From Sporofaciens musculi (GTDB taxonomy: Bacteria > Bacillota > Clostridia > Lachnospirales > Lachnospiraceae), in the NCBI RefSeq assembly GCF_009830285.1, contig NZ_WUQX01000001.1, positions 1-64,000 on the forward strand: a stretch of DNA of 64,000 nt. The letters are read 5' to 3'. Shown here piece after piece: positions 52,991-64,000 of the stretch; positions within the stretch are counted from its first letter, which is position 1, and each line of letters opens with the position of its first letter. The position numbers and the translations under genes are program-made. A model generated the notes under the pieces. The model was not told where the DNA came from and searched no databases. It saw only the letters and a list, made by a program, of their open reading frames with translations.

Positions 52991-55002
52991 CTATTTCTCT
53001 ACTGGTATCTGATCGTATGGAGACGCTTGGAAAGTGCCTGAACTCCCTGAAGCCGCTTCTACGTGAACTAGACACTGAATTAATCGTTGTATTTACCGGT
53101 AAAAGTGACGAGACGCTCGCACTGGCGCAAAAATATACTTCTCATATCATTCCTTTTACCTGGTGTAACGACTTCTCAAAAGCACGAAATGCGGGACTTA
53201 AAGAGGCACGCGGGGAATGGTTTCTCTATCTTGATGATGATGAATGGTTTGATGATACTGGAGAAATAATAGATTTTTTTAAAAGCGGCGAATATAGGCA
53301 TTACCAATCTGCCTTTTATGTTCAACGCAATTATCTGGATTTGGAAGGAAAACGTTACTCTGACACAGATGTCGGCAGAATGTGTCTGTTGACCCCTGAG
53401 ACCGAATTCATTTTCCCGATTCACGAAAATCTGGCGCCTTTTCACAAGCCAAATAAAAAATTAACAGCCTTTGTTCACCATTTTGGTTATGCAAGAAAAG
53501 AAAAATTGGGAGAGTCCGAAACAAAAACAACCCGAAACCTTTCCCTTTTGCTGGCTATGCTTGAAAAAAATCCGAATTCTGCACAATGTTATATGCAGAT
53601 TACACAGGAGTACAGAAGCGTAGGGGAGCCTGGCATTGCAGTTGAATATTGTCGAAAAGGACTTGCCCTTGCCAGACAGGAAAGCCGCATTTACAATTAT
53701 GAGCTATGGATGCAGGCAAACCTTCCGCTATTAATTTCTTATACCGGTGATAAGCGGCTTGCACTAGATGAGGGCGAGCGTATCCTAAATCACCCACGGA
53801 CCTTGGAAGTGGGAACGCTTCATCTGTGCGTGACACTGACGGCGCTGTGCAGGGATTTGAAAGAATTCAGAAAAGGTATTAAGTATGTTAATTTATACCG
53901 CAAGCAGCTTCTTTATCTTTTAAATCATCCTGAAAAAGCCGAACAGCAAAGAGCAGCAGAAATCACTCTGGAAAGCATTGCAGCAAAGGAAGTCTCTGTA
54001 TATATGGAAGGATTATTTCTTACCACAAAGGCAGATGACTTTCCATGTGCCTGCCAGATTATGTCCTGGTTTCCGTGGGAAGATGAAGACCGCATCCTTC
54101 CCCAATATCCCCGTCTGGAAGCATGGAAAAAGGATTATAAAGGAAAATATGATACAATTCTAAGGGAATATGACCGATTAAACACAAATAACCCCTATGT
54201 CTGTATTCAGAAGGCTCTTTACGCAGAACATCAAAAGGATTTTCAGAGAACAAAAGGCTTATGGGAAATCTGCGCTCAGAACTGCCCGCCCGGCTTTCAG
54301 TGGGAATTGATTGAAATTGCTGTGCGCAACCAATTTTCATTGGAAATATTGCTTAAAAGGATGTCTCCAGAGGCGTGGAATGAATATACAGAGGCAGTAA
54401 CAGAACGCAAAGAATGGGAGGAAATGAAAAAATTTTATCAAAAAATCATGCCGTTATTGGAGACATGCCCCTTCTATGCAAGAAAATTGGAACAATCTTT
54501 TCTGGAAAAGCTGCTGACAGGGGAAATGCTGAAGCCTGCTAAATTGATAGAATTGTTAGAACAATATTGTCGGAGTGTCTGCAGCGATGCAAAATTTGTG
54601 TACAGAAAGGAGGCCCTTGAGAATCCTGAGGCTTATGCCCTTCCTGCCAGATATCGATTCGCCGCAAGGCTCAAGGATGCTTTGGGTCTTTTACAGGAGG
54701 GGACGTTTGCTGAGATTTTTATGTTATTAAAAGATGCCATTCATATCTATCCTAAGATGTCGGGGGCAGTTGGACAATTGCTGCGGAACTTGGAAGAAGA
54801 TATACAAAAGCCTAAGCAGCCTGTATCGGAAGAATTTATGGCGCTTGGCGGGCAAGTGAAGCAAGTTCTTCGGGGATTAATTAGTGCGGGCCAATGGGAT
54901 GAGGCGTATGGAGTCTTGGAACAGTTGCAGGCGCTTCTGCCGGATGATTTTGAGGTTCTGCGGATGAAACAAGAGGTATTGCGGCAGGGGGGAAATTTAT
55001 AG
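52975..55002 (+). CDS. Flagellin-cassette glycosyltransferase B, copy 4
   Basis: 675 residues, GT2 domain (LTISLLVSDRMETLGKCLNS; LYLDDDEWFDDTGEIIDFF) plus helical repeats (AQCYMQITQEYRSVGEPGIA) and the common end (GLISAGQWDEAYGVLEQLQA). Start at ATG 52,975 behind AAGGAGG. More distant from the other B copies. Intact. Confidence 0.85.
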   Translation: MRIQLTISLLVSDRMETLGKCLNSLKPLLRELDTELIVVFTGKSDETLALAQKYTSHIIPFTWCNDFSKARNAGLKEARGEWFLYLDDDEWFDDTGEIIDFFKSGEYRHYQSAFYVQRNYLDLEGKRYSDTDVGRMCLLTPETEFIFPIHENLAPFHKPNKKLTAFVHHFGYARKEKLGESETKTTRNLSLLLAMLEKNPNSAQCYMQITQEYRSVGEPGIAVEYCRKGLALARQESRIYNYELWMQANLPLLISYTGDKRLALDEGERILNHPRTLEVGTLHLCVTLTALCRDLKEFRKGIKYVNLYRKQLLYLLNHPEKAEQQRAAEITLESIAAKEVSVYMEGLFLTTKADDFPCACQIMSWFPWEDEDRILPQYPRLEAWKKDYKGKYDTILREYDRLNTNNPYVCIQKALYAEHQKDFQRTKGLWEICAQNCPPGFQWELIEIAVRNQFSLEILLKRMSPEAWNEYTEAVTERKEWEEMKKFYQKIMPLLETCPFYARKLEQSFLEKLLTGEMLKPAKLIELLEQYCRSVCSDAKFVYRKEALENPEAYALPARYRFAARLKDALGLLQEGTFAEIFMLLKDAIHIYPKMSGAVGQLLRNLEEDIQKPKQPVSEEFMALGGQVKQVLRGLISAGQWDEAYGVLEQLQALLPDDFEVLRMKQEVLRQGGNL

Positions 55003-55402
55003 AAACGGGGGGGGGAATCGGCTAATGCCGATTTCTTCCGATTTTAAAGCTAAATAGAGATACCCCGCGGAAATGCGCGCCGTTTGGTACTGGCATATCC
55101 TTCATGGTATCTCTATTTATCGGGGGAATACCCCTTCCCGGAATACTAAGCTAATAAATCTGTATAATCCATCTCCTCCATGACTTTTTTAGGGTAAAGA
55201 TTGGATCGTCGTTAGATAAACTCAATTCATAAAATTAAAGTTAATTTTCTGTTGCCCTAATTCAAAAATTGATCATAATAATTATGTTTTAGCATAGTTA
55301 CATTATAATATGGAGCGGAGGAAAACAGGTTATTAAGCTCATTCTCAAATCCTCTTTTCTTTTTATTCATCAAAGTATTCATTGCTATTCTTCCTCAATG
55401 TA
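55003..55402. other. Intergenic region with a terminator and a long inverted repeat
   Basis: A terminator (55,016-55,038: AATCGGC, TAAT loop, GCCGATT, then TCTTCC) follows glycosyltransferase B4. Further on, TAAATAGAGATACC (55,051-55,064) pairs perfectly with GGTATCTCTATTTA (55,106-55,119) across a 41-nt GC-rich interior. The rest is AT-rich with no gene. Confidence 0.55.
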
Positions 55403-56491
55403 TCACTTCAATTTATTAAATTCCAGTAATCGATTAATTAAAGACTTTACTTCATCATCATTTACTTCTACATCAACAATAATAATAATATCGTAGTAAT
55501 CTTCATTTCTAAAATTTTTTAATCCACCAAGTTCATTACAGACATAATAATCGTTAAAATCAACCTCGCCGTCTATTCTTCTATTATAGTTAATTCCAAA
55601 TTTTAATATATCTATTGCTTTATGCTTATATTTATCCAAGTGTTTCAAAGCATATCTTAAACAATTATTAATTATTGGGTTGATGGAGCGATATGTAATA
55701 GAATCAACTTGTTTTTTTCTTCTACCAATATTCCCCATCTTAAGCTCATAAGGTTTTATTTCAAATATTGAATTAAACAAGTCATCATTGTCTAGCATTA
55801 TTTCCAAATATTCATCTTGACAAAAAATACAATCTTCTGTAGCATAGTGGCCATTTGTAAAAAACATATTGTATGAGTCATAAATATTGTTGAACAGTTC
55901 TACATCATTCATACTTGCAACAAGACGAGCAAACTCTATCCCGTTTTCAAAATGAATCCATGTTATACCTTTATCTTTTCTAAATTCAAATTGATTATGA
56001 GACCATTTCAATTTTATTCCATATTCATCGTGAAGATATCTAACACCATTAACTGAATGATATTCAACTACATAATCGAGGAAGTTTTTACCAAATTCAT
56101 CAGTTTGAGTAAGGATAGATTTCCCATCATTTGTAAGCAACACATCAAATTCATCCTTATATAATTTCGGATCATCTAAATATGCGTAATATCTAAAACC
56201 TTTATTGAAGGGTACATTTCCCTTTTCAGCAGGTAATTTATACGCATCTTCATATAGTAACCGAGCCAATGAAATACCAAATATTTTTTCCAAAGGGATA
56301 ATAAAATCGTATTTAAGTGATCTTTCTCCTTTTAACATTTTTGAAAAGTTAGATTTTTCTTTGTCTGCAAATTTATATGCTTCTTGTCCTTTAATTCCTA
56401 ATTCATGAGCAATATCAACGAGTAAATGACTATACATTCTAATTCCTTTTAATTCCATGTAACGGTCAATATTACTTTTTAAATTTTCCAT
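55403..56491 (-). CDS. XRE-type DNA-binding protein with an unknown, ankyrin-like C-terminal region
   Basis: 362 residues, very AT-rich codon use compared with the motility genes. Residues about 25-80 look like a Cro/CI helix-turn-helix (KSNFSKMLKGERSLKYDFII, PLEKIFGISLARLLYE). The rest is not recognised; segments such as FGKNFLDYVVEYHSVNGVRY and LRYALKHLDKYKHKAIDILK look like helix pairs of ankyrin type. No enzyme motif. It is probably a self-regulating element or defence-associated regulator, since it lies between the flagellin locus and a decayed mobile element. Intact. Confidence 0.6.
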   Translation of the reverse strand: MENLKSNIDRYMELKGIRMYSHLLVDIAHELGIKGQEAYKFADKEKSNFSKMLKGERSLKYDFIIPLEKIFGISLARLLYEDAYKLPAEKGNVPFNKGFRYYAYLDDPKLYKDEFDVLLTNDGKSILTQTDEFGKNFLDYVVEYHSVNGVRYLHDEYGIKLKWSHNQFEFRKDKGITWIHFENGIEFARLVASMNDVELFNNIYDSYNMFFTNGHYATEDCIFCQDEYLEIMLDNDDLFNSIFEIKPYELKMGNIGRRKKQVDSITYRSINPIINNCLRYALKHLDKYKHKAIDILKFGINYNRRIDGEVDFNDYYVCNELGGLKNFRNEDYYDIIIIVDVEVNDDEVKSLINRLLEFNKLK

Positions 56492-56520
56492 ATCTTAACC
56501 TCCACATTCATTGTGTTTAC

Positions 56521-56549
56521 ATTGTATCACGAATTTCGTCGTTTTATCA
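56521..56549 (-). promoter_or_regulatory. Possible promoter and operator of the XRE gene
   Basis: Minus strand TGATAA, 17 nt, TACAAT. The palindrome ACGAATTTCGT (56,529-56,539) lies within the spacer, where a repressor would block initiation. Upstream DNA to 56,740 shows no gene. Confidence 0.35.
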
Positions 56550-56741
56550 GTCATTCACGACAACTTTTGTGGTCTTTTTGGTTTTTATTATAATTTATGT
56601 AAAAACGTATATAGTCAAATTTGACAACACATTTTTAAATTTTCCGTCCAATTTTATGTTACTGTATCAAGCAACATAAAATTAGAAATATCTTTCACAT
56701 ACCAATCTTTTCTATGTACCATCAAAAGCACAAATATAATC

Positions 56742-56894
56742 TCATACATCTGTTCCTGCGCCAGATGTCTTATCAAGGTATTCATCATTTTGATATTCCT
56801 CGTCATTTGGCGTACAAATCAAATACCACCATCCCGGATATTTCTTTACCCATTCAAAAAGTCGGAGCATTTGTCTATCCCTATTCCTTATCAT
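56742..56894 (-). CDS. Small protein of mobile-element type
   Basis: A 50-residue frame beginning MIRNRDRQMLRLFEWVKKYP and ending DEYLDKTSGAGTDV, with AAGGAGAG 6 nt before the ATG at 56,894. The WWYLICTPNDEEYQND core looks coding, and similar short genes accompany conjugative elements of Clostridia. No function known. Confidence 0.5.
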   Translation of the reverse strand: MIRNRDRQMLRLFEWVKKYPGWWYLICTPNDEEYQNDEYLDKTSGAGTDV

Positions 56895-56919
56895 GGTTTC
56901 TCTCCTTGAAAGTATTTGT

Positions 56920-57190
56920 TTAAAGAAGTTCAAAAATCAAATTCGCTCCCAACTGTATTCCCAACTCTGTATACACTTCTTGATTAGCAATAATGGCCTT
57001 GCATATTATGTCATAGACATTATCTTTTTTCTCTCCATCTTGATAAAGATTTTCTAAAAATCCCCAAAGGGACGCTTCATCTCTTTGAAATTCCTCATTT
57101 CCTGCATATTCATCAACCTTTTATTCTCGAAATCAAATATAGAAACTGCTTTTACTATCAAATGTGGAATTTATTTTCACCTCTCTTTTC
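56920..57190 (-). pseudogene. Fragment of a DUF6809-like small protein
   Basis: Minus-strand translation gives EASLWGFLENLYQDGEKKDN and AIIANQEVYTELGIQLGANL, then IFELL and a stop at 56,920. This resembles small element-borne proteins that end in LG..LxxEL. The N-terminal part is interrupted by stops or shifts near 57,115. Identification is from memory of the family pattern. Confidence 0.35.
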
Positions 57191-57230
57191 ATGCATTGTC
57201 TTTTTCTTTTTTTCATACCCTTTTCATCTT

Positions 57231-57440
57231 TTATATGTTTAAAAGCAAGGCAATCCCTAAATTATCTCTGTTTATAATTGCATGCTCCATATATCTTTCC
57301 CACTTCTCTTTCTGCATAGCTTTTCCCTTGCATATATGGTTCACAAAATCAATATTGTCTGCAATCAAGAGTACAATCTCTTTCATTTCGGATGACAGCT
57401 TGTTCAGCTTTTCTATACGGCCAATTTCTGTTTCGTCCAT
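57231..57440 (-). CDS. Small helical protein of mobile-element type
   Basis: 69 residues (MDETEIGRIEKLNKLSSEMK ... YMEHAIINRDNLGIALLLNI). AAAGGAAA stands before the ATG. Looks coding; unknown function. Divergent from the XRE gene at 57,572, and together they resemble the regulatory end of a transposon or conjugative element. Confidence 0.45.
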   Translation of the reverse strand: MDETEIGRIEKLNKLSSEMKEIVLLIADNIDFVNHICKGKAMQKEKWERYMEHAIINRDNLGIALLLNI

Positions 57441-57571
57441 AGCATTGTTTCCTTTCTTCCTTTATTAAATTATTCTATGGAATGATTTCATTCCAATATT
57501 ACAACGTTTCTACTGTAAAATCATTAACGAAATAAATTTATTCCAAAAATATTTGAGAAAGGAAAACCATT

Positions 57572-57817
57572 ATGTCCTCTGTTATCAATCAGGATATATC
57601 CATAGGCTCAAATTTAAAATCCTTACGTCTTCGTAACAAATTATCTCAAGAAGATGTCGCTGCACAATTACAGGTAATGGGATTCACGGTGAGCCGTGAG
57701 ATTATCTCCCAGATGGAATTAGGTCGTCACAACATCCGGGTAAGCGTTCTTTTAGCTCTTAAGGAACTTTATCACGCTACCTTTGATGAAATCTTTGCTG
57801 ATTTATCTTTCCGATAA
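57572..57817 (+). CDS. XRE-family transcriptional regulator
   Basis: 81 residues, a single Cro/CI helix-turn-helix (LKSLRLRNKLSQEDVAAQLQ; SREIISQMELGRHNIRVSVL) ending FDEIFADLSFR. GAGAAAGGA lies before the ATG. Typical of small regulators of mobile elements. Intact. Confidence 0.8.
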   Translation: MSSVINQDISIGSNLKSLRLRNKLSQEDVAAQLQVMGFTVSREIISQMELGRHNIRVSVLLALKELYHATFDEIFADLSFR

Positions 57818-57899
57818 ATGCTTTTAATATCTCCGACCATCATAAGCTCCGTGAAATCTCCGACGCCGTATATTTGGAACATGGGAAAAGTATCTAGAA

Positions 57900-58529
57900 C
57901 GATGCAAAGTTTTACGGTGGGAAGAAAAAGAATACCGGATGAAACAAAACGGAGGGCTGTCACATCGGGAGCTACTGAAAACAGATATTAATACCGCACT
58001 TGCACAGTCCGCCAATTTCAAAGTCTTTGAAATCCGCTTAAAAGATATGAGTTATGAAATATACCGTGACAATAATTTCCCCCCATTATTCCGTAAAAGG
58101 GACAGACCGGCAGAGGGCAGTCTGCTTAGACAGGCTAGGGAAAGAATACACGCCCGAAGCAATCAGGGCAAAACTTCTTAATAACCAGCGGCATATTGGC
58201 TATATCCCGTTCCACAAGTCGAAATATACGCCACTCCTTACGCTTGAAATCGAGTACCGTAAAAATACAGCACATGGACGGCATACAGATAATTTTCGCC
58301 TTTGTAATTGAACTGTGCAGGCTAATCACGGGAAACAATATTGCTCCCGAAACTCCCCGCCCCCTATCCCCCGCTATGATGCAGGAAATTGTAAACTTAA
58401 ATAAAACGCTGAAAGAATACAAGTTCCTATGTGAGAACAACATTGATTCTCCGCAGGATCTTGTTTCTTTAATCGGCGAAAAGCGTGAGCAGATTTCCGA
58501 TTTGAAGCGACAAATCCGGCTGGCACAGC
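57900..58529 (+). pseudogene. Relaxase/mobilisation protein remnant
   Basis: Shifting plus-strand frames give pieces of a mobilisation relaxase C-terminal region: KTDINTALAQSANFKVFEIR, LGKEYTPEAIRAKLLNNQRH, IGYIPFHKSKYTPLLTLE and KEYKFLCENNIDSPQDLVSL. The N-terminal catalytic part is absent. Several frameshifts. It marks the remains of a conjugative or mobilisable element. Confidence 0.55.
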
Positions 58530-58652
58530 CATGTGAAGGTGGACATTTACTTCACGGTAGTAGGGATGATAGATATTCCCACCGGAAGATAAATCCTTGC
58601 CACGATGGAAGAAATACGGAACACCCCGCAGGACTTCAAATTTGTGGCGTAA
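58530..58652 (+). pseudogene. C-terminal remnant of a large serine recombinase
   Basis: The frame from 58,530 reads HVKVDIYFTVVGMIDIPT, a stop, then ILATMEEIRNTPQDFKFVA and a stop at 58,652. This matches the characteristic last 40 residues of TnpX-like large serine recombinases (DUF4368 type) from memory. One internal stop; the rest of the gene is missing. Confidence 0.5.
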
Positions 58653-58897
58653 CAAAGAGATACGGTGTAACCAATTTTAGTTGCACCGCATCCTACATAA
58701 AAACATCCTTATCTGGCGACAATAAATAGTATCCTACCTTTTTCGCACACTATTAATCCAGTACCAAATTCGCCGCAAACACTCATATCCCAATAAACAA
58801 AAGAACTGCCAACTCGCATAACTTTCCCTAACTCCAATTGCAAAAAATATAATATCTTATTTCTCTTTCATTATTTACCATTAAACCATCCTCAGTT

Positions 58898-60154
58898 TTA
58901 TAAATCCTCATTTGTCGCCCCAAAAATCTCTAAAAAATAAGTAATAAAAGGTGGCATAATTGCTGCAACTACAGAAATAAAAATATTCATATCATTACTT
59001 CCGATATTCGAGTTATATGTATAAGCTACTATAATAATAGCCATGCCATACACTACCCATATTTTCCAATGTTTTAACAAAAACCCTAACAATCGCCGCA
59101 TTTTATGATACCCCCATACGTGTGGCACCTGCTGTTGAATTAATAAATGTATTTGATTTATCTTCTCACACAAAAGCTGATAATCGTATTCTCGATATAT
59201 GGATTCAATTTTATTTTTTATTTCATTTACATCTTTAGAGATATCAGTTGTTTTACAAACAGTATCATCAAGATTCTTCACCTTACATTGTACTTCCTCA
59301 AAAGCACCATAGTCGATTCGCTTTAATTCAACTAAATATGCCTGAATATCTTCAATTGACTTGTAAGATGCTATCTCCATTTCAATGTTTGTAAGATGTG
59401 CTTTTATATCCGTAAGTCTTTTCATTTTACTATTTTCAATGGTTTCAAAATGCTCTAAATCATAAATTAACTTCTTAAGGTTTTGATATTGTCTATCTGC
59501 CCAAAAACGTTTGGGTTCAGACACAAGCTTTTTAAGTACATCCAAACGCATAGCTGGATTATCTAAACTGGGATCCACACCTTTTGTTTCTTCATCTTCT
59601 ATTCTAACAGGTGTCAAAACCATAGTCGCAATTCCTTTAAAAACCACACCTCTATCTGTTGACCTACTGATATTCAATCTCAATTTTCTTTTTGTTGGGT
59701 TATTAATCGAAAAAAGTAACATCCCTCTCCACCCAGGATCAAGAGTGGTTGAAATATGCCCAAACCCGCTAGATACCATCTGTACTCGTGAATAAAATGC
59801 ACCTGCCATATTTCCACTTAGTTTAATATATTCACGAGTCAATATTAAAACCGTATCATTAGGATATATTTTAACATAGGTATCACCTTGCTTTGATTTA
59901 TGTATAGTGAGCAACCTTCGTTTTGTAATCGAATAAATAAATTCTGTGGCAGTCAAATTGTAGCCGCATCCTGTCGCATTTTCTTTCTGATAAGGAGCAA
60001 TCATAAAATTAGAATCCAGCTCAGTACGCATGTTGCGAATATTAGTTCCTGTTAATTGAAAAACTCCTTCTTTTTTTTTCCATTTTAATCTATGACTCCT
60101 CTCTTGTTTACTCACTTTTGTCTTATTGACTTCTTTTTTTTTTTTTAGGTTCAT
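58898..60154 (-). CDS. Membrane protein with a dCTP-deaminase/dUTPase-like domain (candidate defence partner)
   Basis: 418 residues. Residues about 45-185 follow the Dcd/dUTPase fold pattern: NFMIAPYQKENATGCGYNLT, YPNDTVLILTREYIKLSGNM, then SRVQMVSSGFGHISTTLDPG with WRG and an NPT turn. Residues 200-345 are helical with coiled-coil character. Two membrane helices at about 364-380 and 389-410 end the protein. By alignment from memory with E. coli Dcd, the catalytic Glu (E138) and Arg (R115) positions appear to be Ser and Met, so it may bind nucleotides without deaminating them. No ribosome site precedes the ATG; it starts inside the deaminase gene at a 13-A tract. Intact. Confidence 0.65.
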   Translation of the reverse strand: MNLKKKKEVNKTKVSKQERSHRLKWKKKEGVFQLTGTNIRNMRTELDSNFMIAPYQKENATGCGYNLTATEFIYSITKRRLLTIHKSKQGDTYVKIYPNDTVLILTREYIKLSGNMAGAFYSRVQMVSSGFGHISTTLDPGWRGMLLFSINNPTKRKLRLNISRSTDRGVVFKGIATMVLTPVRIEDEETKGVDPSLDNPAMRLDVLKKLVSEPKRFWADRQYQNLKKLIYDLEHFETIENSKMKRLTDIKAHLTNIEMEIASYKSIEDIQAYLVELKRIDYGAFEEVQCKVKNLDDTVCKTTDISKDVNEIKNKIESIYREYDYQLLCEKINQIHLLIQQQVPHVWGYHKMRRLLGFLLKHWKIWVVYGMAIIIVAYTYNSNIGSNDMNIFISVVAAIMPPFITYFLEIFGATNEDL

Positions 60155-62503
60155 TATTTTTCTGAATATCTTTTTTTAATTTCATGGTGTTTGATGCATA
60201 TTTATTCTCTTTTGCATCTTTCTTTTCGACACTTTTAGATATCTTTCCATTTAGTTTATAGCCAAGCCATAATTCTAATTCATCTTTTTGAGATATAATC
60301 GGTGTATAGAGATAAGTATATGCACGTCCCAAAGCACCTGTAAAAAGTTCCTGTATCGGTCTTCGTCCTTCTATTCCATCACACATAATATGTTTAGAAG
60401 AAATACCTGAATACGGTTCCACATAGTAAACTTTAGATACACCCATAAAACACAACTTTTTTGTACATAACTCACAAGGACTAGATGTGGTAAAAAGATA
60501 TCCACCTTCAATACTAACTCCGCCTTGGTCAGCTAAGCTTAAAAATGCTCTTTCTTCGGCATGTAGTGCTCTGGGATGAACCTGATTTTTACTACCAGTT
60601 TTCGCATTATATACATCTTTAAAACAGAACGGAATCCTTTTCCCTTTTCTTCGCATAACTTCTCCAGCTTGCTCTATCCTACTATCTTGACTAATATACT
60701 TTTGAAATTCATCTGTATCATCATTTTCAAAATCGCTGTATGCTTCAAGATTCCAATGCTGTTTAACCTCTTGCATATCACGGTATATACATGGAACTCG
60801 ACCAAACGGCACATCATTCCATCCAATAGATCGAATTCGATATTGACTATCCGTAAGTACTGCCCCAACCTGTCGTGAAATACAACCAGAACAAACTTTA
60901 GCAGCTTGCGCAATTTGCATACATCTTTCTATAGGTGTCGGCAGAACTAATCCCGGATTCATAATCAGGGAAATATACCTAACTAGTTTTTTCTTCAAGC
61001 TCAAATTCTGTTGATTATCATTATGATTGTTGATAAAAATATCTGCCGACTCTATACACTGTTCTACATTTTGTGTAATAAAAGGTAAAATTTTTACTAA
61101 ATCATCACGTTTAAGTTTGTCTGTAAGTTGTTCTAACACCGCTTTAGACAGCATACTGTTTTCATCATCTAATTCTTTATCTCTTTTATATTTATTAAAT
61201 AATTTTTTAAACTCTTTTAATTGTTCAATTGTATCAATCGTTTGAATTTCTTGCAATGTAAGGCTTTTATCCGACTTTTCTAACCGATTATACCGTTCTG
61301 TTTCATCAGTATAGATAGCCGTTAAATAGTAACTTGAATATCGCGCTTTTAAATATGTTGACTCAAAAGGATTTTTAATGGAATCAATAACTACAACCAC
61401 CTGTTTCGTCCCTTGATCTAAAAGCCTAAGACATTCCTCATACTTAGAAGAACCGGAAATACTGTCCCTATATTCCTTTTGGTTTTGTAAATAATCTCGC
61501 AAAATTTTCAGATATAAATTAACACGTCTTATAATTGTTAAAAACCCTTCGTCTTTAAAAAAGAGATTTTGTTGTTCTATATCATAAACAAATGGTTTTC
61601 CCCATATACGCAAATTAATTCCTATATCTTGTAGAATCATAATAGGCAAACCATGCTGAATTCTTCCAATTTTTTTTAACAGCTCATTTGCAGCTTGAGG
61701 CAAAGCATTATATGCATATTCATAAAGCATCCAATATAATAAATTATTCCATTGTTTCCTTTTGCTTTTACGAAAAATTGAATATTCCTTCATTATACTC
61801 TGCATATCGTGAAGTTTGATATGAAAAATACATCTTTGGCTTTCTTTTTCATATTCGTATTTAAACTCATATTTTCCGAGATGATATATCTCAAAAGGAG
61901 GTTCCTTACCAATTTGTGCACTAATCTTATTAACATTAGGCCAATTCATATCTTTTGTCTGTGGAAACAAGAGGTTCCATGAATCCGCTTCCGTCATAAA
62001 TCCTCCTAAATTCTCCAATATTTGTTCCCAATTTAGAGAAGAATTTTTATCTTTAAGAGGGAAATCCATCATTATTTTTTTAGTAAAATACTCAGGCAAA
62101 ACAAAGCTCATTTCTGAATCATAAAAAGTCTCTAATGCATTTTTATTCTTTCTCTATTTTCTACCGATAGTCTATCAAACATTTTTTCTAAGTATTCTGT
62201 AAATATATTTTTTTGACATTCCTCCAATAAAAAACCTATCATAAGTCTACTAACCTTAATCTGATAGAACGGCATCCAATTCTCTTTGGCATAATTGTAA
62301 AGAATCAGTTCCTCTGTAGCTTGGACAGAACCTTTAAGTTCTTCAGATGGCATTGGGATATTTAACTGTGTAAAATCCTGCGTTAAAATCTCTGAAACAG
62401 TGGAACATCCAGATCCAGTTCTCCCACATAACCCTAAAACAATAAAGCCTTTCAGTGAAGTAAAAAGGCTATCTGCTATTTTATAATTAAATTTGTCTTT
62501 CAT
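60123..62503 (-). CDS. P-loop kinase-like / zinc cytidine deaminase fusion, DcdV/AvcD-type anti-phage deaminase, one frameshift
   Basis: About 795 residues when repaired. N-terminus: P-loop LGLCGRTGSGCSTVSEIL (residues about 23-40; Cys in place of the usual Lys). Middle: a kinase-like segment with KQVVVVIDSIKNPFESTYLK. C-terminal: a zinc deaminase with HAE (60,556-60,566 region, HPRALHAEERAFLSL) and PCxxC (60,467-60,484, SSPCELCTKKL), preceded by ERCMQIAQAAKVCSGCISRQ. This order equals that of DcdV/AvcD and dCTP-deaminase defence proteins, which deplete dCTP/dCMP on phage infection. The frame breaks at 62,140 in an A5 run: six A would give ERIKNALETFYDSEMSFVLP. Start ATG 62,503 behind GGAGAT. 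Longer than the known members. Confidence 0.75.
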
Positions 62504-62551
62504 AATCTCTATCTCCCTGCCTTCTTTTAGGAATATATAATATTAAATTAG

Positions 62552-62602
62552 ACAAAAAAAGTAAGATAACAAAGCAGACCTCACCTACTTTATCACCTTA
62601 CT
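62552..62602 (-). terminator. Intrinsic terminator after the glycerophosphotransferase-like gene
   Basis: Minus-strand stem of 15 bp with three wobble pairs (AGTAAGGTGATAAAG with CTTTGTTATCTTACT), 13-nt loop, then TTTTTTTG. It separates the upstream gene from the deaminase. Confidence 0.75.
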
Positions 62603-62708
62603 ATTGATTAACCTTTTTAATAATAACATAATTCGACATTTTCAGTCAACTACCCAGCAGCTTCTAATCCCTCATAGCCCCCGACAATATTCTTCACTTC
62701 CAAACATC

Positions 62709-64000
62709 TCATATTATCTCCACATTCTGTATCATAATTGGTTTCCCTGCCTTCTGACACAACTGCACCAGACTGCTTCCATCTCCGTAATACGCATCGC
62801 ATAGCGCAATCGCCCGATTCAGCTCGGCAGAATCGTCATAAATCCCCCATCCTTCAGCCTTATACTGTTCCTCAAGCTGCACATATTGAAGCCATAACTG
62901 GGGCCGCATAGATTCTATGGTTGCCTTTATCAACGGATGCGGCCTCCATAATAACGCCACATCCTCAATATTCTCTTTAAATATATCAAATACGGACTGC
63001 ATCTTCTGAAGCATCTTCTCCCCTTCCTGCAGTAACGCCGTAACGCTGGTATTATATAAGATTACTTTTTTTCTGCTCCCATCTGGTTTCTCAAGGATCT
63101 GCCTCCATCTTTCCGGAAGCGTATACTCCTCCTCCGATGTTTTCGCCACCTTATCCAACTTCGGGGAGCCAAGCCCCAGAATCTTCTTCTCCCAGTGGGA
63201 TCTTGTATTCTCTCCCGCGGCATCCGTCAGCGCCTCTATATATGCCTTCCGCATATTCTCCGACTGCACAATTACTACATCCGCATTGAATACCCCCGGC
63301 ACCGTACAAAAATGCGCAATTCCCTTCACTGCCTCCTCATTTTCTGGATCAATCTCACCTAGAACAAAGTAGGGAATATAGACCAGTTTGTCCGTATACT
63401 GCTTCAAGTTCTTAGAATAAAACTCCGGCAAAACGCTGGTCACATAATTGCAGTCATCATAAGGATTGTGAATGTAAATCATGTCCGGTCTGCGCTTTTC
63501 AAAATCATACTCCTTATAACTCATGACGGGAACATACTCAGGATACAGGTCCCCTTCATAATGTACCTCTCTGAAGCTTCCGTCAATATTTTTGTCATAG
63601 TATGGAATAGGCACAACATAAGCGTCACAATTCGGATCCTCATCCGCCGCCTTCCACACACTTTCCAGCGAATCCCACATGGAAGCTTTGTACGGCAGGA
63701 ACACAGCCTCCATACGCTCAGGTATATCATGCTTCACGCTGTTCTCCATCTTAATCAGCGAGCGGCGCAACGCCTTACACACTTGACTCACATTAACTGG
63801 ATTATTCTGAGAAACATCTTCATATATCTGATATGCCAGTTCACAGTAATCCTCAATCATAGGAATCGTGACAAAGTCCTCACCTTCTACCTTCTCGATA
63901 ATTTCTCCCAACTGGATGGCACATTCCTGACACTGTGACAGCAGATCCAGCGCCGCCTCAGTATTCCTCGTCTCTATCGTCTTCTTAATCCCGCCATGCG
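62709..64000 (-). CDS. CDP-glycerol glycerophosphotransferase-like protein, 5' end outside the window
   Basis: The minus-strand frame is open to the window edge (HGGIKKTIETRNTEAALDLL upstream of the first in-window start-like TTG at 63,911), so the gene continues beyond 64,000. Visible product about 430 residues. The N-terminal part is helical. The GT-B-like fold shows VPVMSYKEYDFEKRRPDMIY, FNADVVIVQSENMRKAYIEA, KKVILYNTSVTALLQEGEKM, LLWRPHPLIKATIESMRPQL and AYYGDGSSLVQLCQKAGKP. Members are linked to teichoic-acid or capsule polymer synthesis. Its stop overlaps a 20-codon frame (MRCLEVKNIVGGYEGLEAAG, 62,650-62,712) of unknown meaning. Confidence 0.75.
   Translation of the reverse strand, partial: HGGIKKTIETRNTEAALDLLSQCQECAIQLGEIIEKVEGEDFVTIPMIEDYCELAYQIYEDVSQNNPVNVSQVCKALRRSLIKMENSVKHDIPERMEAVFLPYKASMWDSLESVWKAADEDPNCDAYVVPIPYYDKNIDGSFREVHYEGDLYPEYVPVMSYKEYDFEKRRPDMIYIHNPYDDCNYVTSVLPEFYSKNLKQYTDKLVYIPYFVLGEIDPENEEAVKGIAHFCTVPGVFNADVVIVQSENMRKAYIEALTDAAGENTRSHWEKKILGLGSPKLDKVAKTSEEEYTLPERWRQILEKPDGSRKKVILYNTSVTALLQEGEKMLQKMQSVFDIFKENIEDVALLWRPHPLIKATIESMRPQLWLQYVQLEEQYKAEGWGIYDDSAELNRAIALCDAYYGDGSSLVQLCQKAGKPIMIQNVEII

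What the first reader, a model, noticed from the sequence alone, without database searches (positions are those of the whole stretch)
58898..62503. Two-gene locus: P-loop/deaminase fusion overlapping a membrane-anchored Dcd/dUTPase-fold protein
Seen: HAE and PCxxC zinc-deaminase motifs behind a P-loop domain, directly followed by a gene with a dCTP-deaminase/dUTPase-like domain, coiled coil and two terminal membrane helices. It is flanked by mobile-element remains. Known: DcdV/AvcD and dCTP-deaminase defence proteins deplete cytosine deoxynucleotides during phage infection, and need no such membrane partner. Inference: a new variant in which the membrane protein senses nucleotides, tethers the deaminase or acts as a second effector.
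Basis: partly seen in the sequence, partly recalled or inferred. Interest (0 to 1): 0.9.

Follow-up and report, generated by a model that had tools for sequence, protein, structure and literature searches.

The report
Membrane sensor paired with antiphage deaminase
Beside a gene for a likely anti-phage enzyme that would destroy a DNA building block, this bacterium carries a gene for a protein that is predicted to sit in the membrane, resembles a nucleotide enzyme but lacks that enzyme's catalytic residues, and probably senses DNA building blocks to switch its partner; related pairs recur in other bacteria and one archaeon, although the enzyme gene is split between two reading frames in this copy.

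Summary
The two genes are real. 60123-62111(-) is a DcdV/AvcD-type deaminase (PADLOC dCTPase, E 1.2e-106). Its P-loop part is on another frame (62132-62503), so the gene is broken here; unbroken relatives exist. The P-loop lacks the Walker lysine in 82 of 82 aligned relatives. 58898-60154(-) is a Dcd/dUTPase-fold protein with a predicted C-terminal membrane hairpin ("DCD-TM"; AF2 pLDDT 87). In 0 of 96 aligned DCD-TM proteins are the Dcd Ser111, Arg115 or Glu138 equivalents kept: a pseudoenzyme. DCD-TM adjoins a deaminase or dUTPase in 17 of 18 species-level loci (DcdV-type in 12), 2 of 2 plasmid loci (one with a defence-candidate SIR2) and 47 of 54 cyanobacterial loci, mostly thymidylate-synthesis clusters. 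So it is neither a solitary housekeeping gene nor purely defensive. Best reading: a membrane-anchored pyrimidine-dNTP sensor that governs dUMP-making enzymes, recruited in Clostridia-type genomes to control an anti-phage deaminase. Sensing, gating and defence are inferred. Eight paper searches listed no description.

The parts
58898..60154 (-). DCD-TM: Dcd/dUTPase-fold pseudoenzyme with helical stalk and predicted C-terminal membrane hairpin (418 aa)
   Evidence: PF22769; 115 relatives; AF2 model; fold matches; catalytic residues lost in 96 of 96 aligned
59540..60061 (-). Dcd-fold domain of DCD-TM, about residues 32-205
59129..59554 (-). helical (coiled-coil-like) stalk, about residues 201-342
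   Evidence: AF2 secondary structure
58910..59068 (-). C-terminal hairpin, helices 363-382 and 390-415, predicted transmembrane
   Evidence: AF2 helices; one hydrophobic segment over the threshold in this protein (390-408), two in 76 of 115 relatives
60123..62111 (-). long-form DcdV/AvcD-like deaminase, main part: extra helical region, lid region, zinc deaminase domain with HAE and PCxxC
   Evidence: PADLOC dCTPase 1.2e-106; NF041025 290.9 bits; alignment
62132..62503 (-). N-terminal degenerate P-loop part of the same deaminase, in another reading frame (gene broken in this copy)
   Evidence: PADLOC dCTPase 3e-09; frames; unbroken relatives; Walker lysine absent
60123..60154 (-). 32-bp overlap of the two ORFs (operon-like coupling)
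   Evidence: ORF coordinates
55000..62700 (.). lower-G+C, probably acquired segment that carries the pair
   Evidence: composition; similarity to 5 fetched genus relatives ends at 62699-62716

Best explanation
The locus is a two-gene unit in which a DcdV/AvcD-like deaminase, predicted to remove cytosine deoxynucleotides during phage infection, is likely governed by the next gene's product, a predicted membrane-anchored Dcd/dUTPase-fold protein that lacks the Dcd catalytic residues and would act as a nucleotide sensor. Shown by sequence: the gene pair, its recurrence, the lost catalytic residues, and the link of the membrane family to dUTPase, dCMP deaminase, Dcd and thymidylate-synthase genes. 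Predicted by model: the Dcd fold, the helical stalk and the membrane hairpin. Inferred: the Dcd-like pocket binds a pyrimidine deoxynucleotide (dCTP, dTTP, dUTP or dUMP) without turning it over. Inferred: through the stalk the protein holds or gates its partner at the membrane, so that the partner is idle in a healthy cell and released when infection shifts the dNTP pools. Inferred: this takes the place of the RNA antitoxin AvcI of the known AvcID system. Inferred: one sensor module serves both pyrimidine metabolism and immune effectors; which use came first is not known. The copy in this window is probably not functional as sequenced, because its deaminase frame is interrupted.
For: Partners of DCD-TM: DcdV-type deaminase in 12 of 18 species-level loci and dUTPase in 8 of 18, at least one deaminase or dUTPase in 17 of 18 (4 of the 12 deaminases were also scanned with PADLOC and match); dUTPase in 2 of 2 plasmid loci, one with a SIR2 that matches PADLOC candidate PDC-S25 at 3.2e-159; dUTPase or dCMP deaminase within 3 kb in 45 of 52 further cyanobacterial loci, any of six pyrimidine/thymidylate gene types in 51 of 52, with family names confirmed on examples by Pfam. 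These enzymes make dUMP or lead to it (known biochemistry; AvcD acts on dCTP and dCMP, PMC10511110, passages read). 10 of the 30 best-matching DCD-TM clusters share the exact longest-contig length with one of 120 listed deaminase clusters, null mean 0.19, maximum 3. Pseudoenzyme: equivalents of Dcd Ser111, Arg115 and Glu138 kept in 0 of 96 each, mapping anchored on the E. coli Dcd chains 1xs1 and 1xs4, while G64-Y65-N66, S75, E108, T136-T137, D139 and W142 are invariant in 96 of 96, so a pocket seems still under selection. Fold. Rare and patchy outside Cyanobacteria (1 of 98, 1 of 398, 1 of 397, 2 of 397, centre or own genome included), with some defence or mobile neighbours: OLD/GajA-like and an integrase in L005, GmrSD-like in L009, a type I restriction piece in L018, integrases in L003 and L015 (neighbours picked by eye, no background rate).
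Against: No ligand, interaction, localisation or protection was measured. The cyanobacterial context (53 of 388 genomes; mostly thymidylate clusters) is metabolic, so defence is not a property of the family as a whole. DCD-TM also occurs with dUTPase and no deaminase nearby (L007, L011, L014, L017 and the plasmid L021), where there is no deaminase to govern. In the AvcID system extra dUTPase did not change protection (PMC10511110), so a dUTP signal has no support there. The hairpin of the window protein passes the hydrophobicity threshold only once, and 5 of 52 cyanobacterial ORFs show no segment (at least one of these is split by a stop). Several DcdV-linked loci (for example L002, L008, L013) show no obvious defence neighbour in the ORF lists.
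Confidence: 0.45

Rival explanations
1. DCD-TM is a second, membrane-damaging effector: its Dcd-like domain reads the deaminase product (dUTP or dUMP) and the hairpin then opens the membrane, as transmembrane CBASS effectors do (recalled), while dUTPase in sister loci keeps the signal low.
For: Sensor-like domain plus short membrane hairpin; dUTPase pairing without a deaminase nearby; SIR2 + DCD-TM + dUTPase order.
Against: Pairing with dCMP deaminase (34 of 52) and thymidylate-synthase-like genes (41 of 52) in cyanobacteria is hard to square with a lethal pore; dUTPase overexpression had no effect on AvcID.
Confidence: 0.22
2. DCD-TM is a passive scaffold that gathers dUMP-making enzymes at the membrane into a metabolon, with no signalling role.
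For: Varied enzyme partners of one pathway; long helical stalk.
Against: Strongly conserved pocket residues in 96 of 96 are not expected of a passive tether; free-standing dUTPase is trimeric and needs no scaffold (recalled).
Confidence: 0.13
3. The pair is a nucleotide-homeostasis device and not a defence system, also in Clostridia-type genomes.
For: Thymidylate clusters in Cyanobacteria; dUTPase + deaminase + DCD-TM in L015 and DCD-TM + dUTPase + deaminase in L016.
Against: Deaminase partners match the anti-phage family (PADLOC; the L016 partner passes the NF041025 cut-off, 431 against 400, the other six scanned do not); patchy presence outside Cyanobacteria and some defence neighbours.
Confidence: 0.12
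4. DCD-TM is an active enzyme with altered chemistry, for example a dUTPase-like hydrolase.
For: Closest solved relatives by profile are dUTPases of the Dcd family (8y1w, 9ln0); Asp139 is invariant in 96 of 96.
Against: The Arg-Ser-Ser motif is replaced by (R/K)-V-x in 95 of 96 and the Dcd Glu is absent in 96 of 96; a dUTPase is often encoded next door already (8 of 18; 15 of 52).
Confidence: 0.08

Closest known systems
DcdV / AvcD (AvcID) anti-phage dCTP/dCMP deaminase
   Same: Zinc deaminase domain behind a P-loop-like domain; matches PADLOC dCTPase and, mostly under its cut-off, NF041025.
   Different: The nine partnered forms with an unbroken frame among the ten strong loci are 730-867 aa, against 576-627 aa in 4 solo relatives; L009 and L016 (438 and 529 aa) are partnered and short. 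A membrane Dcd-fold partner is encoded; no Rfam family was found nearby, while the antitoxin of AvcID is the RNA AvcI (PMC10511110).
dCTP deaminase Dcd and bifunctional Dcd-dUTPase (TIGR02274, PF22769)
   Different: Ser111, Arg115 and Glu138 equivalents lost; extra helical stalk and predicted membrane hairpin; TIGR02274 34 bits against a cut-off of 92.8.
Clover (CloA/CloB)
   Same: Two genes around a dNTP-depleting effector that is set by nucleotide signals (PMC12265719, abstract, opening paragraph and outline seen).
   Different: Clover uses a dGTPase and a nucleotidyltransferase; here a deaminase and a membrane Dcd-fold protein.
Transmembrane CBASS effectors
   Same: Nucleotide-binding domain joined to a short membrane segment (recalled).
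   Different: The sensor fold differs (recalled); a cyclase gene was not searched for, and membership was not tested.

Membership tests
DcdV/AvcD anti-phage deaminase | zinc-deaminase motif (H-A-E, PCxxC) | tested here: met
   His, Glu and both Cys in 82 of 82 aligned relatives (middle residue Ala 65, Gly 17); HAE and PCxxC present in the window ORF
DcdV/AvcD anti-phage deaminase | match to the PADLOC dCTPase model | tested here: met
   1.2e-106 for the main part, 3e-09 for the P-loop part; no curated cut-off is given for this library
DcdV/AvcD anti-phage deaminase | NCBIfam NF041025 over its curated cut-off (400 bits) | tested here: not met
   window 290.9, P0117 310.7; of 7 deaminases scanned only L016 passes (431.0)
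DcdV/AvcD anti-phage deaminase | N-terminal P-loop (kinase-like) domain | tested here: inconclusive
   P-loop-like motif present, but the Walker lysine is absent in 82 of 82; the 4 solo relatives also show no Lys there
DcdV/AvcD anti-phage deaminase | RNA antitoxin (AvcI type) | tested here: inconclusive
   no Rfam match in 54900-63200 at E up to 0.5; I do not know that the library holds an AvcI model
DcdV/AvcD anti-phage deaminase | phage protection and dC-nucleotide depletion | not testable with these tools
   needs experiment
dCTP deaminase (Dcd) | Dcd fold | tested here: met
dCTP deaminase (Dcd) | catalytic Glu138 (with Ser111 and Arg115; the roles of the last two are recalled) | tested here: not met
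   0 of 96 each; 5 of 5 Dcd controls, four of them close cyanobacterial kin, keep all three, as does the E. coli chain 1xs1
dCTP deaminase (Dcd) | TIGR02274 over its cut-off (92.8) | tested here: not met
   34.0 bits
trimeric dUTPase (PF00692) | PF00692 match | tested here: not met
   not among the matches listed at E up to 1
transmembrane nucleotide-triggered effector | ligand-gated membrane damage | not testable with these tools
   needs experiment

The most novel reading that the evidence does not exclude
DCD-TM proteins are a new class of membrane-bound deoxynucleotide receptor: catalytically dead Dcd homologues that read the pyrimidine dNTP pool and gate dUMP-making enzymes in thymidylate synthesis, and the same sensor module is plugged into immunity, controlling an anti-phage deaminase in Clostridia-type genomes and other phyla and standing beside a SIR2 effector in Peribacillus.
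Probability: 0.4. Interest if true: 0.82.

Novelty: new variant of a known kind. Interest (0 to 1): 0.62.

Why it matters
How nucleotide-depleting immune enzymes are kept silent until infection is an open question; two described answers are an RNA antitoxin (AvcID, PMC10511110) and an inhibitory nucleotide (Clover, PMC12265719). A pseudoenzyme sensor at the membrane would be a third. It would link immunity to thymidylate metabolism and give a marker (PF22769 domain plus C-terminal hairpin, next to a deaminase, dUTPase or SIR2) for finding more such systems.

Tried and rejected
Rejected: an intact P-loop kinase (no Walker lysine). Rejected: Dcd activity of the membrane protein. Rejected: a phage origin of DCD-TM: no confirmed relative in viral contigs (20 and 24 candidate stretches) or in 50,697 phage records, within the sensitivity of these searches. 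Rejected: 'second gene mostly alone'. Not found: an Rfam RNA near the locus; flanking repeats of an insertion (one search gave only short, chance-like pairs); a solved structure of a full-length DcdV by sequence or among the 50 of 489 rows shown of the fold search, whose best rows are dCMP deaminases.

In the genome searches with alignment A3 at most five candidates per genome were scored, so rarity is an estimate. Single-protein searches of plasmids found the same 2 records twice. Literature: searches listed no paper on a membrane Dcd partner (listings and starts of abstracts seen); the two 2022 papers on DcdV and AvcD (recalled) are not held, so the claim of novelty rests on open-access text only. 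PMC10733785 was searched for passages; 'transmembrane' does not occur in it.

Dropped before counts: the hits of G502 contig C710 and G507 were not among the 52, being L014 and L019 of the 18-locus set, so these two loci are counted in both sets (18 and 54); ORFs called canonical Dcd were removed before the DCD-TM ORF was chosen. In one search, L103 was left out beforehand, L017 and L114 were dropped as too short, and L118 had no ORF of 100 aa: 70 of 74 candidate rows. In one search, 95 of the 115 relatives were aligned with the window protein. In one search, 82 of the 120 listed (of 843 found) deaminases were used. 4 of 55 plasmid deaminase hits were opened.
Full report
What is there. On the minus strand, 60123-62111 encodes a 662-aa protein with a zinc deaminase domain (PF00383) that matches the PADLOC anti-phage dCTPase model at 1.2e-106 and NCBIfam NF041025 at 290.9 bits, below its cut-off of 400. 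The P-loop part of the same protein is a separate ORF in another frame, 62132-62503 (PADLOC dCTPase 3e-09). The protein database holds an unbroken 815-aa relative listed at 100% identity to the 662-aa part (P0116; 99% in the alignment) and an 808-aa relative at 89% (P0117), so this copy is broken by mutation or by an assembly error; I cannot tell which. The deaminase of L005 is also interrupted, by an in-frame stop. The P-loop is degenerate: the position of the Walker lysine is V 51, C 22, S 7, L 1, I 1 in 82 aligned relatives, and the four solo DcdV-like proteins inspected also show no Lys there. The His and Glu of the deaminase motif and both Cys are kept in 82 of 82.

A pseudoenzyme. E. coli Dcd chains place Glu138 in the motif that is altered in the E138A entry. 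In the MAFFT alignment of 31 DCD-TM and 5 canonical Dcd (counted) the Dcd controls, four of them close cyanobacterial kin, keep Ser, Arg and Glu in 5 of 5; none of the 31 DCD-TM proteins keeps any of them. In the 96-row alignment A3 the three positions are V in 96; S 66, T 14, A 13, C 3; and S 61, A 21, P 13, G 1. Other positions (Gly64, Tyr65, Asn66, Ser75, Glu108, Thr136, Thr137, Asp139, Trp142, Asn152, Arg203) are invariant in 96 of 96. So the pocket seems under selection, but not for deamination. That Ser111 and Arg115 are catalytic is recalled. The most distant cyanobacterial forms vary more (for example G64 and Y65 are not kept in L064, L074, L076 and L077).

Who its neighbours are. A scan of the species genomes with the DCD-TM alignment alone gave 18 loci. 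A DcdV-type deaminase is adjacent in 12 of 18 (10 at E 1.1e-138 or lower; L009 and L016 at 3.6e-25 and 1.7e-21 with my model, but 2.8e-79 and 5.5e-154 with PADLOC). A dUTPase (PF00692) lies nearby in 8 of 18. At least one deaminase or dUTPase occurs in 17 of 18; L018 has neither but lies beside a type I restriction piece. In the ten strong deaminase loci the two genes overlap or are at most 50 bp apart by their longest ORFs; in L009 and L016 the deaminase is 239 bp and 366 bp away, in L016 with the dUTPase between. L009, L015 and L016, the last from an archaeal MAG, carry all three genes. Of the 30 best-matching DCD-TM clusters in the protein database, 10 share their exact longest-contig length with one of the 120 listed deaminase clusters; shifted lengths gave a mean of 0.19 and a maximum of 3. 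Two plasmid records carry DCD-TM, both with dUTPase, one in the order SIR2, DCD-TM, dUTPase with recombinase genes on the same stretch; the SIR2 matches PADLOC candidate PDC-S25 at 3.2e-159. By contrast the four solo DcdV-like plasmid genes opened (of 55 hits) have neither DCD-TM nor dUTPase in the stretch read (L026 ends 0.4 kb after the gene, at the record's end).

The metabolic branch. In the cyanobacterial order around G502, 53 of 388 genomes have DCD-TM (54 hits). Of the 52 loci read anew, 45 have dUTPase (15) or dCMP deaminase (34) within 3 kb, 47 have a thymidylate-synthase-like gene (ThyA-like 41, ThyX 6), 25 a nucleoside deoxyribosyltransferase-like gene, 15 a canonical Dcd, and 51 at least one of these six types (family names checked by Pfam on examples). 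The other two hits (L014, L019) also have dUTPase, so 47 of 54. In three genomes the neighbouring dUTPase is the only PF00692 match (G499, a Bacillus; G505 and G507, cyanobacteria). This is a thymidylate-synthesis context, not a defence island.

The defence branch. Outside Cyanobacteria the family is rare: 1 of 98 relatives of the window genome, 1 of 398 of its phylum, 1 of 397 around L011 and 2 of 397 around L008, each count including the genome that was the centre or the window's own. The window pair lies in a segment of lower G+C; 5 of 5 fetched genus relatives keep the gene on its right, but DNA similarity ends at 62699-62716 and neither gene of the pair is found there. Neighbours that I picked by eye include an OLD/GajA-like ATPase and an integrase (L005), a GmrSD-like protein (L009), a transposase (L016) and integrases (L003, L015); other loci (for example L002, L008, L013) show no obvious defence gene in the ORF lists, and no background rate was measured. 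A tree of 70 DCD-TM domains puts the window with L002-L006 (support 100/95) inside a larger group with most dUTPase-linked forms of the 18-locus and plasmid sets (84/89, not a starred branch).

How it most likely works. The enzyme partners dUTPase, dCMP deaminase, Dcd and DcdV make dUMP or lead to it. A dead Dcd pocket beside such enzymes suggests a sensor of pyrimidine deoxynucleotides. An E138A E. coli Dcd and the bifunctional Dcd of M. tuberculosis are solved with dTTP (titles of 2j4q and 2qxx), which shows that the fold can hold an end product. I propose that DCD-TM governs its partner according to the dNTP pool, and that in Clostridia-type genomes the governed partner is an anti-phage deaminase, where the known AvcID system uses an RNA (PMC10511110, passages read). 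The nine partnered deaminases with an unbroken frame among the ten strong loci are 730-867 aa, longer than the four solo ones (576-627 aa); the model of P0117 (pLDDT 86.3, pTM 0.87) puts helices at residues 231-349 between the P-loop and the later strands, a candidate docking site. L009 and L016 (438 and 529 aa) are exceptions. Ligand, gating and protection are inferred, not shown.

Limits. The window copy cannot be taken as functional.

Noticed in passing
window 62132-62503 and relatives in A5: The P-loop of the long DcdV-like deaminases never has the Walker lysine (82 of 82 aligned), and four solo relatives also show none, so this domain may bind nucleotide without hydrolysing it, or not bind it at all.
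   Followed up: partly
L022:4339-7392: Plasmid gene run SIR2 (PADLOC candidate PDC-S25) + DCD-TM + dUTPase in Peribacillus, with recombinase genes on the same stretch.
   Followed up: partly
L058-L077, L095-L126: Cyanobacterial clusters with a membrane pseudo-Dcd beside ThyA-like or ThyX, dCMP deaminase, dUTPase and a deoxyribosyltransferase-like gene; 53 of 388 genomes.
   Followed up: yes
window 55403-56491(-): 362-aa ORF on the same low-G+C segment, no Pfam family over its cut-off, faint PADLOC PDC-M64 matches at its N-terminus (best E 0.015).
   Followed up: no
window 57572-58729(+): HTH protein followed by short ORFs without Pfam matches; possible decayed mobile element.
   Followed up: no
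L005:5690-7987: The deaminase of a complete Ruminococcus genome is interrupted by an in-frame stop, a second broken copy beside an unbroken DCD-TM.
   Followed up: no
L130:4600-8930: A genome of the same family as L008 has DCD-TM behind ORFs that look like thymidylate kinase and a Dcd (names recalled, not scanned) and an unknown ORF of about 364 aa; no deaminase or dUTPase was found on the stretch.
   Followed up: no
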